Assembly: GCF_002072155.1 (NCBI RefSeq)
Contig: NZ_BDIY01000004.1
Coordinates: 124,001 to 188,000 of the forward strand
Length of the DNA: 64,000 nt
Direction of reading: 5' to 3'
Source: Roseovarius sp. A-2
GTDB taxonomy: Bacteria > Pseudomonadota > Alphaproteobacteria > Rhodobacterales > Rhodobacteraceae
The notes beneath the pieces are model-generated. The model saw only the letters and a list, made by a program, of their open reading frames with translations. It was not told the origin of the DNA and did not search any database. Below are positions 35,815 to 41,031 of the stretch, one piece after another (position 1 is the stretch's first letter; the number at the start of each line of letters is the position of its first letter). The translations under genes were made by a program, and so were the position numbers.

Positions 35815-36573
35815 ATGAAGATTCTCGATGTCGCGATGCACCGGCGCAGTATGCGCAAATGGCGGCAGGCCGCGCGCAACGCCCCGATGATGAACATCAG
35901 TGCCCTGCGCCGGGCACGGGCGCAGGCACGCAAGCTGATGTATTCCCTCAACGAGGTGATCTCGGTCGCCGACAATCGCCTGGCGCTGCCGATGATCGGC
36001 TCTAACGCCTTTCCGCGCCCGCATGGCACCGATTGGGCCTGGCGCCCCGAGATCTGGCGCGAACCGCTGCCGACGCCCGGCATGGCCTCGGTGCAGTCGA
36101 AATCCATGCTCGGGCGCGAGGTGACGCTGTTTCACGACTGCGCCCATTCAGAACTGTCGCTGCGCCAGCTGCGCAACAGCCGCGAGGCCGATCTTGCGCC
36201 GTATGGGCTGCGTATGGATGTCTTCGCCTTCGACGGCTCGTTCCTGTCGCTGGTGCTCGATTTCCCGCAGCAGGCCATCGACGGACTGACCCGGCGGCAC
36301 CTCATTCGCATGGACACCATCGTCGAGCTGGAAAAGCCGCTCGAAATCTTTGCACGGCTCAATATCAAACACGGGCCCAACACCCAGCAGATCGTGCGCG
36401 AACTGCCGCTCAACGAGGAAGAGATCATGGTCGAGTTCGACCTTGCCTATTCCACGCTGAGCGAAAAGCGGGTGGAACGGGCCTGGATCGACCTGATCTT
36501 CGAGAACCCGCAGATGAGCCAGGTCGTGCTGCGCGACGTCACCTTCAGCCGCCGCCCGCGTGCGGATCTCTAG
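35815..36573 (+). CDS. conserved Rhodobacteraceae protein (resembles DUF6478)
   Basis: The 252-residue soluble protein has basic N-terminal helices and a mid-region FHDCAHSELSLRQLRNSREADLAPYGLRMDVFAFDGSFLSLVLDFP. The ending is rich in beta-strand (QVVLRDVTFSRRPRADL). I believe it matches DUF6478 of Rhodobacterales, but this is from memory. No signal peptide and no catalytic motif are evident. It is followed 13 bases later by a small acidic protein gene, and the two are probably an operon. Confidence 0.65.
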   Translation: MKILDVAMHRRSMRKWRQAARNAPMMNISALRRARAQARKLMYSLNEVISVADNRLALPMIGSNAFPRPHGTDWAWRPEIWREPLPTPGMASVQSKSMLGREVTLFHDCAHSELSLRQLRNSREADLAPYGLRMDVFAFDGSFLSLVLDFPQQAIDGLTRRHLIRMDTIVELEKPLEIFARLNIKHGPNTQQIVRELPLNEEEIMVEFDLAYSTLSEKRVERAWIDLIFENPQMSQVVLRDVTFSRRPRADL

Positions 36574-37884: not shown

Positions 37885-39063
37885 ATGACACAGACCGCCC
37901 CGATCACGCAGGACGTGATGACCATCCCCCGCAAGCTGCCCGACGGGCCGATCAATCTGGTCGGGCTGACCCGGGACCGGCTGCGCGAGGTGCTGATCGA
38001 GCACGGCACGCCGGAGAAACAGGCCAAGATGCGGGTGAACCAGATCTGGCAATGGATTTATGGATGGGGCGTGCGCGACTTTGACGCGATGACCAATCTT
38101 GCCAAGACCTATCGCGCCGATCTGGCCGAGACGTTCGTGATCGAGATTCCCGAGGTGGTGAGCAAACAGGTCAGCGCCGATGGCACGCGCAAATATCTTG
38201 TGCGGATCGCGGGCGGGCATGAGGTTGAGGTGGTTTATATTCCCGAGACGGATCGTGGCACGCTGTGCATCTCGTCTCAGGTGGGCTGCACCCTGACCTG
38301 TTCGTTCTGCCATACCGGCACGCAAAAGCTGGTGCGCAATCTGACCGCCGGAGAGATCATCGGTCAAGTGATGCTGGCGCGGGATGATCTTGACGAATGG
38401 CCGCGCCCCGGCGAGGGCGCGGGCGAGCGGCCGCGCCTGATCAGCAATATCGTGCTGATGGGCATGGGCGAGCCGCTCTATAATTTTGACAATGTGCGCG
38501 ACGCGATGAAAATTGCGATGGATGGCGAGGGCATTTCATTGTCGCGCCGCCGGATCACACTGTCGACAAGCGGCGTTGTGCCGGAGATCGCCAAGACGGC
38601 GGAAGAGATCGGCTGTCTGCTCGCTGTCAGCTTTCACGCCACCACCGACGAGGTGCGCGACCGGCTGGTGCCGATCAACAAGAAATGGAACATCGAGACG
38701 CTGCTGGGCGCCCTGCGCGAGTATCCGCGCCTCAGCAATTCCGAGCGCATCACGTTTGAATATGTCATGCTCAAGGACGTGAACGACAGCGATGCCGATG
38801 CCCGCCGTCTGGTGCAACTGATCAAGGGTATTCCGGCCAAGATCAACCTTATTCCGTTCAACGAATGGCCCGGCGCGCCGCATCAGCGCAGCGATTGGGA
38901 GCGGATCGAGCGCTTTGCCGACATCATCTACAAGGCGGGCTATGCGAGCCCCATCCGCACCCCACGTGGCGAGGATATCATGGCCGCCTGTGGACAGTTG
39001 AAATCGGCGACCGAACGCGCCCGCAAGCCACGCCGCGATATCGAGGCCGAGGCGGGGCTCTGA
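37885..39063 (+). CDS. rlmN: dual-specificity 23S rRNA A2503/tRNA A37 C2-methyltransferase
   Basis: The 392-residue radical SAM enzyme methylates A2503 of 23S rRNA and A37 of some tRNAs. The [4Fe-4S] motif is Cys135, Cys139, Cys142 in [27 protein letters not shown] follows, and a C-terminal MAACGQL segment holds the cysteine used for methyl transfer. The start follows GAAAGAG. It is followed by the amidoligase gene three bases later. Confidence 0.96.
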
Positions 39064-39066
39064 TCC

Positions 39067-40020
39067 GTGGCGGAGTTCGCGCCCCTGCCGCAGCCGCTCA
39101 ACTCCAAAGGTGATCCGCGCCTCGTGGGCGTGGAAATCGAGCTTGGTGGGCTGCCCGAGGCCGAGGTGGCGCGGCTCTGTGCCGAGGCTGTGGGCGGGAC
39201 GCCCAAGCAGGTCGATAGCCATATCTGGCATATCGAGGACAGTCGCATCGGGCGGCTTGAAGTCTATCTCGATATCTTTCTGCGCAACGCGCAGAAGAGC
39301 AAGCTGCGCGATCTGGCGCTGGATCTAGGGCGCGAGGTGGTGCCGGTCGAGATCGTGAGCGAACCGCTCGACATGGACGGGCTGGCGCGGCTTGATGCGC
39401 TGCGCGAGGTGTTGCGCGAGGCCGGGGCGTTGGGCAGTCGCGCGGGCTGGTTTTTTGGCTTTGGTCTGCATCTCAATATCGAGATCGCAAGTGACGAGGA
39501 CGCCGATATCGTGCGCCCGCTTCTGGCCTATGCGCTGATCGAGGACTGGCTGCGCACCGATGACCCGATTGACGAGTCGCGCCGCCTGCTGCCCTTCACA
39601 GATCCCTACCCCACCGATTTCGTGCGCGCCCTGATCGGGGCCGGGCCGGGGGCCACGCGCGACCATGTGACGGGCCTCTATCTGGAGCATACGCCGAGCC
39701 GTAATCGTGGCCTCGACATGCTGCCGGTTTTTGCGCATTTCGAACCGGACCGCATTGCGGCGGCGATTGCCGACAAGACATCAGCGCGTCCCACGTTTCA
39801 TTTTCGCCTGCCCGATTGCCGGATCGACGAGGCGGGATGGTCGATCGCGTGGGAATGGCGGCGTTGGCGCACGGTCGAACGGGTGGCCGCCGATGCGGCG
39901 CTGCTCGACCGGTTGGCGCGGGCCTGGGAGGACGATCATGGCCTGCTGACGATTTCCCGGCAAAGCTGGGCCCTGCGGGCGGGGCGTATTTTGCAAACGG
40001 CGGGGCTGGCCGGGACATGA
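39067..40020 (+). CDS. putative amidoligase enzyme (PF12224-type)
   Basis: The 317-residue cytosolic protein starts with GTG. The N-terminal VGVEIELGGLPEAEV is the conserved VExE-like opening of the amidoligase domain, with HLNIEI later providing the second metal/ATP motif. These enzymes belong to the glutamine synthetase-like COOH-NH2 ligase fold and are predicted to join amino acids to small molecules or to peptides. It ends in an ATGA overlap with a class I amidotransferase-like gene. No substrate is known. Confidence 0.8.
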   Translation: MAEFAPLPQPLNSKGDPRLVGVEIELGGLPEAEVARLCAEAVGGTPKQVDSHIWHIEDSRIGRLEVYLDIFLRNAQKSKLRDLALDLGREVVPVEIVSEPLDMDGLARLDALREVLREAGALGSRAGWFFGFGLHLNIEIASDEDADIVRPLLAYALIEDWLRTDDPIDESRRLLPFTDPYPTDFVRALIGAGPGATRDHVTGLYLEHTPSRNRGLDMLPVFAHFEPDRIAAAIADKTSARPTFHFRLPDCRIDEAGWSIAWEWRRWRTVERVAADAALLDRLARAWEDDHGLLTISRQSWALRAGRILQTAGLAGT

Positions 40021-40739
40021 CCCGATCCAACCGCCCCGTGATCGGGGTCACCGTCTCGCGCCGCTCGGGCTGGCGCATCTATCCGCTGATTGCGCTCAAT
40101 GTCTGGCTCTCGGGGGGCTGCGCGCGGCGCTGGCAAGCCGGGCGCAGGGCGGATATCGACAGTGTGGACGGCATTATCATCGGCGGCGGCGACGATATAT
40201 CGCCCGATCTATACGGTGGGCGGATCGTCACCTCGGCCCGGCTCGATCCGGCGCGCGATGCGCTGGAGCGGGGCGTGTTGCTGGGGGCCTTCGTGAAATC
40301 CAAGCCCGTGCTGGGCATCTGCCGGGGCAGCCAGATGCTCAATATCGCATTGGGCGGGACGCTGCATCAGGACGCCTATTCGACCTACGCGGCCAGCGAC
40401 CATATCCGCACGGTGCTGCCGCGCAAGACGGTGCATATCGAGCCGGGCACCCGGCTGGCGCGTCTGGCGGGTTTGCGCCCGATGAAGGTCAACGCGCTGC
40501 ACACCCAGGCGGTGGACCGGCTGGGTGAAGGATTGCGCGTGGCGGCGCGCGATCAGGGTGGCATGATCCAGGCCATCGAGCGGGTCGAGGAGCCGTTTGC
40601 CCTGGGCGTGCAGTGGCACCCGGAGCATCTGTTCTACGCGCATCGGCAAATGGGCATTTTCCGCGCGCTGATCGCGGCCGCGAAGGCCCGTCAGGCACAT
40701 ACGGCGCAACTCGCGGGGGTCGATGCCGCCAGCGGCTGA
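40017..40739 (+). CDS. class I glutamine amidotransferase-like hydrolase (peptidase C26)
   Basis: The 240-residue protein has the triad Cys102 (GICRGSQMLN), His201 and Glu203 (QWHPEHLF). The FPGGDD-type IIIGGGDDISPDLYGG is typical of gamma-glutamyl-GABA hydrolase PuuD relatives. It overlaps the amidoligase stop, so they are translated together. A ligase paired with a hydrolase suggests a cycle that adds and removes a gamma-glutamyl group, but the substrate is unknown. Confidence 0.87.
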   Translation: MTRSNRPVIGVTVSRRSGWRIYPLIALNVWLSGGCARRWQAGRRADIDSVDGIIIGGGDDISPDLYGGRIVTSARLDPARDALERGVLLGAFVKSKPVLGICRGSQMLNIALGGTLHQDAYSTYAASDHIRTVLPRKTVHIEPGTRLARLAGLRPMKVNALHTQAVDRLGEGLRVAARDQGGMIQAIERVEEPFALGVQWHPEHLFYAHRQMGIFRALIAAAKARQAHTAQLAGVDAASG

Positions 40740-40842: not shown

Positions 40843-41031
40843 ATGAACCTGAACCAGTGTGAACCCAACCGCGAAATCCACGATCTTGTCCTGCGTGAGC
40901 GTCACCTCGCCGTGTCCGAGCGCGAATGGAAGCACCGGCTGCGCGGCTATGGCTACGCGATCCGCGATACCGCCGAGGGGCGTTTCGTCACCTCGCTTCT
41001 CAAGGGTGCGCCGCTCTGCCGGTTGAGCTAA
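40843..41031 (+). CDS. small conserved-looking protein, unknown
   Basis: The product has 62 residues from the ATG at 40843 (MNLNQCEPNREIH) or 65 from 40834. It is charged and helical, with LRERHLAVSEREWKHRLRGYGYAIRDTAEGRFVT. The codon use is like its neighbours. There is a possible TTGACG -35 at 40782-40787 but no good -10. The stop lies 13 bases before the end of purD, which converges on it. No function can be assigned. Confidence 0.55.
   Translation: MNLNQCEPNREIHDLVLRERHLAVSEREWKHRLRGYGYAIRDTAEGRFVTSLLKGAPLCRLS

What the first reader, a model, noticed from the sequence alone, without database searches (positions are those of the whole stretch)
39067..40739. Amidoligase and class I amidotransferase-like hydrolase overlap in one operon with rlmN
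A PF12224-type amidoligase (GTG start, three bases after rlmN) and a C26 hydrolase with intact Cys102, His201 and Glu203 share an ATGA overlap. Amidoligases of this fold are predicted to make unknown amide-linked metabolites or peptide tags, and a partner hydrolase suggests a make-and-remove cycle. The link with a ribosome/tRNA methylase gene is unexplained.
Basis: partly seen in the sequence, partly recalled or inferred. Interest (0 to 1): 0.62.

Follow-up and report, generated by a model that had tools for sequence, protein, structure and literature searches.

The report
Gamma-glutamyl ligase and hydrolase gene pair
Two overlapping bacterial genes encode an enzyme that probably attaches glutamate to an unknown amine and one that probably removes it; this pairing has been in print since 2008, but a link of its relatives to the general stress response is a new lead to what it does.

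Summary
Window 39067-40020 is a PF12224 amidoligase (AmL), 40017-40739 a C26 thiol hydrolase; they share an ATGA overlap and keep their active-site residues. The pair is a conserved unit: C26 lies directly downstream of AmL in 64 of 74 other PF12224-bearing genomes sampled, across 15 families. It is not new: Iyer, Burroughs and Aravind described this neighbourhood in 2008 (PMC2588565). The rlmN link is local: 20 of 29 genus genomes, 1 of 19 family, 0 of 26 beyond. I read the pair as a maker and a cleaver of a gamma-glutamyl amide. New support: one genus of the family lacks this C26 and carries a cyclotransferase-like gene (PF06094) beside AmL in 3 of 3 AmL carriers. New lead: in the wider family the EcfG promoter motif GGAAC-N16/17-CGTT lies within 300 bases upstream of AmL in 8 of 18 loci (359 shuffled controls: mean 0.017, maximum 2), and general-stress regulator genes lie within about 6 kb in 7 of 19. 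The window's own copy has no such motif. Substrate unknown.

The parts
39067..40020 (+). AmL: PF12224 amidoligase (carboxylate-amine ligase of the glutamine-synthetase fold), 317 aa, GTG start
39127..39141 (+). codons of the GhExE motif, residues 21-25 (Mg/ATP site by PMC2588565)
   Evidence: G, E, E in 56 of 56 rows
39469..39477 (+). codons of the HxN motif, residues 135-137
   Evidence: H 47, Q 9, N 56 of 56 rows
39799..39807 (+). codons of the HxR motif, residues 245-247
   Evidence: 56 of 56 rows
40017..40020 (+). ATGA stop-start overlap of the two genes
   Evidence: the commonest spacing among relatives
40017..40739 (+). C26 thiol hydrolase (PF07722), 240 aa
40320..40322 (+). codon of catalytic Cys102
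   Evidence: invariant in 46 of 46 rows
40617..40625 (+). codons of His201-Pro-Glu203 of the triad
   Evidence: invariant in 46 of 46 rows
37885..39063 (+). rlmN, upstream neighbour; context, not part of the conserved unit
40843..41031 (+). 62-aa ORF downstream; context, found with the pair only in genus-clade loci

Best explanation
A two-gene gamma-glutamyl amide unit. Inferred from fold and motifs: AmL uses Mg-ATP to phosphorylate the gamma-carboxylate of glutamate (or of a glutamyl compound), and an amine attacks to give a gamma-glutamyl amide. Inferred from the triad and solved relatives: C26 hydrolyses a gamma-glutamyl amide through Cys102, returning glutamate and the amine, possibly altered in between. 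Shown: both genes are intact, overlapped and conserved as a pair, and in one genus a cyclotransferase-like gene takes the place of C26. That swap points to a product with a free glutamate alpha-amine, which a cyclotransferase needs (established knowledge, recalled). Shown for the wider family by sequence only: the pair often stands behind an EcfG-type promoter motif and near the general-stress regulator genes; that it is stress-induced is inferred. The window's copy lies behind rlmN and has no such motif. The amine is not known.
For: Superfamily motifs listed in PMC2588565 are met: G21, E23, E25, D69, E95, N137, R212, H245, R247 in 56 of 56 rows and H or Q at 135 in 56 of 56. Fold: AlphaFold pLDDT 91.8; Foldseek's only two hits at E <= 0.001 are YbdK-type ligases, 5.0e-4 and 6.9e-4, with plant glutamate-cysteine ligase next at 1.5e-3; VIA Z 12.7 to glutamine synthetase, 216 residues, rmsd 4.0. 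C26: triad 46 of 46; solved relatives include PuuD 6vtv. Pairing 64 of 74. In G083 AmL stands apart, but a C26 of 296.8 bits lies elsewhere in that genome; paired copies score 345-362 and all other C26 members at most 161 in the same call. Genus of G037: AmL in 3 of 5 genomes; a PF06094 gene directly upstream in those 3 and not found in the other 2; pair-type C26 absent from all 5, best 105 bits. G037's AmL groups with two C26-paired AmLs (99/96) inside the 28-row family clade (100/100). EcfG link.
Against: I found no biochemistry for any member in the library searched. Making and removing one bond with two co-translated enzymes is futile unless the steps are separated or the amine changes in between, and no third enzyme recurs broadly nearby (only part of the neighbours were scanned). 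The PF06094 matches are weak (28.7-32.9 bits, cut-off 22.8), the AlphaFold model of that protein failed (pLDDT 48.8), and it bears an N-terminal hydrophobic stretch (by eye), so it may work in another compartment. A clade of amidoligases (L064, L088, L089, L135-L138; 100/99) has no C26 neighbour. Two GCS2 proteins of the own genome gave no profile match, and TM-scores in Foldseek are low, 0.31-0.39. The EcfG motif is absent from the window, from 0 of 15 class and 0 of 8 phylum loci none has it, and of 39 genus loci scanned only L111 has it upstream.
Confidence: 0.6

Rival explanations
1. Two-subunit glutamine-dependent amidotransferase: C26 hydrolyses glutamine and hands ammonia to AmL, which makes a primary amide on some carboxylate, as in MurT/GatD.
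For: C26 also matches class I GATase, PF00117, 55.7 bits; the GS superfamily includes ligases that use ammonia; genes overlap. MurT-GatD amidation of peptidoglycan exists as precedent (listing and abstract starts of PMC5871853 and PMC3267633).
Against: C26 matches gamma-glutamyl hydrolases better than glutaminase subunits. In the genus of G037 the neighbour is a cyclotransferase-like gene, which would not feed ammonia. In G083 the two genes lie apart.
Confidence: 0.13
2. Amine breakdown of the Puu type: AmL glutamylates a polyamine-like amine, an oxidase encoded elsewhere acts, and C26 removes the glutamate from the acid.
For: PuuD is among the solved relatives of C26. Some C26-less PF12224 genes lie beside FAD oxidases: DAO in L080, Amino_oxidase in L049. 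One plasmid pair lies by an aldehyde dehydrogenase.
Against: No oxidase recurs beside the C26-bearing pairs among the clusters and neighbours examined. The own genome's second strong C26 (31% identical) is also a candidate for that step.
Confidence: 0.15
3. Cell-wall modification: the pair makes and trims unusual gamma-glutamyl links in peptidoglycan, as proposed for phage cassettes.
For: Published proposal for phage amidoligase cassettes (passages of PMC5498523, PMC10580990 and PMC11253131).
Against: Those cassettes use other neighbours (class II GATase, ATP-grasp), no phage relative of the window AmL was found, and no cell-wall gene recurs beside the pair in what was examined.
Confidence: 0.08
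4. Functional link with RlmN: the pair modifies the ribosome or tRNA.
For: Adjacent in the window and in 20 of 29 genus genomes.
Against: 1 of 19 in the family, 0 of 26 beyond (the four loci it skipped have no rlmN hit).
Confidence: 0.03

Closest known systems
Ligase plus 'glutamine amidotransferase-like thiol peptidase' neighbourhood of Iyer, Burroughs and Aravind 2008 (PMC2588565; abstract, passages and part of section 5 seen)
   Same: Ligase of GCS2 size with this neighbour in proteobacteria; the paper also notes an Aig2-family cyclotransferase as neighbour in firmicutes and predicts glutathione-like or related peptide metabolites. That its second family is PF12224 is my recollection of Pfam's text plus the matching description.
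   Different: The window is one more member. Not in the parts I saw: the counts, the swap of C26 for a cyclotransferase-like gene inside one proteobacterial family, and the EcfG link.
Puu pathway (PuuA, PuuD)
   Same: GS-fold ligase that makes a gamma-glutamyl amine and a C26 hydrolase that removes glutamate (pathway recalled; PuuD structure 6vtv).
   Different: The only Pfam family over cut-off for AmL is PF12224; no PuuB or PuuC counterpart recurs nearby in what was examined.
Pupylation ligase PafA
   Same: GS-fold ligase with GhExE that uses a gamma-carboxylate.
   Different: No Pup-like protein conserved with the pair; the partner is a thiol hydrolase.
Phage amidoligase cassettes
   Same: PF12224 with a GATase, sometimes a cyclotransferase.
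   Different: The GATase is PF13522, class II, where the Pfam is given; no phage relative of the window AmL found.

Membership tests
PF12224 / carboxylate-amine ligase superfamily | profile score above the curated cut-off | tested here: met
   150.3 bits against 22, residues 17-267
PF12224 / carboxylate-amine ligase superfamily | GhExE, acidic residues on strands 2 and 3, [HD]x[NH] on strand 4, conserved Arg, Ex[RK]x2D-like motif on strand 6 | tested here: met
   56-row alignment against the list in PMC2588565. Variants: Q in place of H135 in 9 rows; strand 6 begins with H instead of E, and its last D is kept in 33 of 56. Residues assigned by motif and predicted strands, not by superposition
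PF12224 / carboxylate-amine ligase superfamily | glutamine-synthetase fold | tested here: met
   pLDDT 91.8; all 50 VIA rows shown are glutamine synthetases or close relatives, Z 11.3-12.7; Foldseek E 5.0e-4
PF12224 / carboxylate-amine ligase superfamily | ATP-dependent amide bond formation | not testable with these tools
   needs purified protein
Peptidase C26 (PF07722) | profile score and Cys-His-Glu triad | tested here: met
   162.9 bits against 20.5; triad in 46 of 46 rows
Peptidase C26 (PF07722) | gamma-glutamyl hydrolase activity | not testable with these tools
   needs an assay
Ligase-thiol peptidase neighbourhood of PMC2588565 | GAT-like thiol peptidase gene adjacent to the ligase in proteobacteria | tested here: met
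   own pair; 64 of 74 other genomes
Puu pathway | oxidase and aldehyde dehydrogenase encoded with ligase and hydrolase | tested here: not met
   none in the window neighbourhood; none recurrent among relatives in what was examined
Pupylation-like tagging | small conserved protein with C-terminal G[E/Q] beside the ligase | tested here: not met
   62-aa ORF only in genus-clade loci, ends CRLS
EcfG regulon, window copy | GGAAC-N16/17-CGTT upstream | tested here: not met
   none within 330 bases of AmL or rlmN and none in the 64 kb
EcfG regulon, relatives in the family | GGAAC-N16/17-CGTT upstream | tested here: met
   8 of 18 family loci with controls; motif from PMC3892343 (passages)
EcfG regulon, relatives in the family | expression dependent on EcfG or PhyR | not testable with these tools
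   needs transcript data

The most novel reading that the evidence does not exclude
A stress-induced gamma-glutamyl cycle of alphaproteobacteria: under general stress (EcfG) the cell caps an amine, perhaps an osmolyte precursor or a harmful amine, with gamma-glutamate and later uncaps it; the uncapping enzyme may be a C26 hydrolase or, in one genus, a membrane-anchored cyclotransferase. The product would be an undescribed stress metabolite.
Probability: 0.25. Interest if true: 0.62.

Novelty: new member of a known kind. Interest (0 to 1): 0.42.

Why it matters
The PF12224-C26 pair has stood without a known reaction since 2008. Two findings here make it testable. The exchange of C26 for a cyclotransferase-like gene narrows the product to a gamma-glutamyl amide. 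The EcfG motif says under which conditions to look for it in the wider family (general stress rather than standard growth), in harmless marine bacteria such as Dinoroseobacter shibae, whose pair carries the motif 33 bases upstream.

Tried and rejected
Functional link with rlmN: rejected on synteny. Pup-like tagging: rejected, no conserved small partner outside the genus clade. Phage origin: tblastn of AmL against 50,697 phage records gave no match; in the viral contigs 6 stretches matched a pattern and none was confirmed. PHROGs gave no family for AmL and a phage glutamine amidotransferase for C26. Defence system: no PADLOC match for either protein. Sequence search of PDB with AmL found no ligase: best rows a carboxyl esterase at E 1.1 and, with the profile, a fibronectin-binding protein at E 0.027; only fold comparison worked. 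Profile comparison with two GCS2 proteins of the own genome failed. Recurrent third gene: besides the general-stress regulators, the families that recur in regional loci occur in a few each; twenty-odd neighbour proteins scanned by Pfam showed no common enzyme. Sigma-70-type scan: no promoter between rlmN and AmL stood out. The AlphaFold model of the cyclotransferase-like protein failed, so its fold was not searched.

What was counted: the 18 family loci of the motif test are the 19 family loci less L049, whose AmL was not found by tblastn; AmL starts are those of the tblastn alignment. In L031 the motif lies inside the 3' end of the upstream kinase gene; in L036 and L037 it starts in the last bases of the upstream gene. 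Without L031 the count is 7 of 18. I first saw the motif with spacers 15-18 (8 strict of 18) and narrowed to 16-17 for the controls. Motif-bearing loci are spread over the family tree, but common ancestry means they are not 8 independent events.

Full report
What is there. Downstream of rlmN (37885-39063) lie two genes on the + strand. AmL (39067-40020, GTG start three bases after the rlmN stop, 317 aa) matches PF12224 Amidoligase_2 at 150.3 bits against a cut-off of 22. C26 (40017-40739, 240 aa, ATGA overlap) matches PF07722 Peptidase_C26 at 162.9 bits against 20.5. Downstream of C26 come a 62-aa ORF (40843-41031) and purD on the other strand. The ten closest named relatives are all Roseovarius, Roseovarius tolerans at 91% identity, so the genome is most likely a Roseovarius. 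It holds one PF12224 gene and a second strong C26 elsewhere, 31% identical over the matched part.

Is the ligase intact? [quoted passage not shown] In a 56-row alignment, G21, E23 and E25 (GhExE), D69, E95, N137, R212, H245 and R247 are in 56 of 56 rows; position 135 is H in 47 and Q in 9; the last D of the strand-6 motif is in 33 of 56. The AlphaFold model (51 rows) has a mean pLDDT of 91.8. Foldseek's only two hits with E up to 0.001 are YbdK-type ligases (1tt4_A, 5.0e-4; 1r8g_A, 6.9e-4), with plant glutamate-cysteine ligase next (1.5e-3); TM-scores are low, 0.31-0.39. The VIA second look gives glutamine synthetases and close relatives in all 50 rows shown, Z 11.3-12.7. For C26, Cys102, His201 and Glu203 are in 46 of 46 rows, and solved relatives include PuuD.

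Is the pair a unit? PF12224 occurs in 20 of 120 family genomes, 17 of 190 class genomes and 13 of 249 phylum genomes (each count including the own genome and, in the phylum, two others already seen), and in 30 of 60 genus genomes. Leaving out the own genome and repeats, 74 genomes remain. A C26 relative lies directly downstream on the same strand in 64: 16 of 19, 14 of 16, 6 of 10 and 28 of 29, in 15 families by handle. The commonest spacing is the ATGA overlap. The 10 misses: L123 ends at a contig edge; L030, L065, L090 and L091 are PF12224 matches in which tblastn with the window AmL finds nothing, and L091 comes from a genome with four fragmentary matches; L064, L088 and L089 fall in a clade of their own with four plasmid copies (100/99); L013 and L027 are treated below. 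Of 11 plasmid records with an AmL relative I opened 6: two carry the pair (D. shibae pDSHI02 and strain SC52), four show no C26 gene nearby in the listed features.

Two informative exceptions. In G083 AmL (L013) has no C26 beside it, but a C26 scoring 296.8 bits against the pair profile lies on another contig; paired copies in the same call score 345-362 bits and all other members at most 161. In G037 (L027) a gene matching PF06094 GGACT (32.9 bits, cut-off 22.8) lies directly upstream of AmL on the same strand. In its genus, 3 of 5 genomes have AmL. In those 3 the GGACT gene is adjacent, in the other 2 it is not found (these two are 91% and 68% complete), and pair-type C26 is absent from all 5 (best 105 bits). 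G037's AmL groups with two C26-paired AmLs (99/96) inside the 28-row family clade. I read this as replacement of the cleaving enzyme by one of another fold. Both enzyme kinds cleave gamma-glutamyl amides (established knowledge, recalled), so the swap supports a gamma-glutamyl amide as the product and argues against C26 as an ammonia donor. Cautions: the PF06094 scores are modest, the model of that protein failed, and its hydrophobic N-terminus (by eye) may place it at or across the membrane.

The rlmN link. rlmN lies directly upstream in 20 of 29 genus genomes, with one more at 897 bases, in 1 of 19 family genomes, 0 of 16 class and 0 of 10 phylum genomes (four loci that this call skipped show no rlmN). 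It is a clade's local arrangement.

The stress link. In 7 of 19 family loci, fetched to about 6 kb on each side, genes of the general stress response lie near the pair: PhyR, EcfG and the sensor kinase in L031, L036, L040, L043, L045 and L048, EcfG alone in L047 (NepR was matched in L036). Arrangements differ: in L031 and L036 the kinase is the next gene upstream on the same strand, in L047 ecfG is, in L043 and L045 the group lies downstream on the other strand. PMC3892343 (passages) gives the EcfG promoter of Rhizobium etli as GGAAC-N16-CGTT. In 18 family loci, GGAAC-N16/17-CGTT lies within 300 bases upstream of AmL in 8 (spacer 16 in five, 17 in three); all other spacers from 10 to 23 give none; 359 pairs of shuffled half-motifs give a mean of 0.017 and a maximum of 2; other ORFs of the same loci have it in 3 of 162, two of these being ecfG and phyR themselves. 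One of the 8 (L031) lies inside the upstream gene. The genes upstream differ between loci, so the motif is not simply carried along with a shared flank. Against a wider claim: 0 of 15 class loci and 0 of 8 phylum loci have it; of 39 genus loci scanned only L111, which lacks rlmN directly upstream, has it; the window has none at all. So the window's copy appears to have left this control and joined rlmN, or never had it.

What it is, and how new. [quoted passage not shown] The fuller 2009 paper by Iyer and colleagues is not held, so I cannot say what more it contains. No paper in the library holds both 'amidoligase' and 'general stress response'. I file the window as a new member of a known kind; the swap and the EcfG link are what I did not find in print, within these searches.

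Mechanism. Most likely AmL joins the gamma-carboxylate of glutamate to an amine with ATP, and C26 takes it off again, perhaps after the amine has been altered or when stress ends. The steps rest on fold, motifs, neighbourhood and the swap; none was assayed. The substrate is open: the Pfam-scanned neighbours show no common enzyme. Interest is set at 0.42: the pair itself is known, but the stress link makes an old orphan testable.

Noticed in passing
L031, L036, L040, L043, L045, L047, L048: General-stress regulator genes (phyR, ecfG, kinase; ecfG only in L047) lie within about 6 kb of the pair in 7 of 19 family loci; used in the report.
   Followed up: partly
window 40843-41031 (+): 62-aa ORF downstream of the pair, 58-90% identical in the relatives found, all of them Roseovarius or genus loci, 20 of 29 genus loci among them; no Pfam family. 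Its occurrence without the pair was not tested.
   Followed up: partly
L134 (Dinoroseobacter shibae pDSHI02): A gene annotated dihydroneopterin aldolase lies directly upstream of the pair (FolB match for the same locus L044), and four EcfG-type motifs lie within 7.6 kb.
   Followed up: no
L140 797-821 and 897-1073: In the window's own genome, near its second strong C26 gene, a stretch 52% identical to a 64-aa D. shibae protein encoded behind the pair follows an EcfG-type motif.
   Followed up: no
L064, L088, L089, L135-L138: A supported clade of PF12224 proteins (100/99) without C26 neighbour; in L136 (Azospirillum) the gene overlaps a response-regulator gene.
   Followed up: no
L080 4603-5733 (-); L049 7094-8374 (+): FAD-dependent oxidoreductase (DAO) and amine oxidase genes beside PF12224 genes that lack C26.
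   Followed up: no
L039, L040, L047: A phospholipase D-like gene recurs beside the pair in three family loci.
   Followed up: no
G517 contig C114 (L091-L094): Four fragmentary PF12224 matches within about 4.6 kb on one contig.
   Followed up: no
window 35815-36573 (+): DUF6478 protein, 426.8 bits, of unknown function, a little upstream.
   Followed up: no
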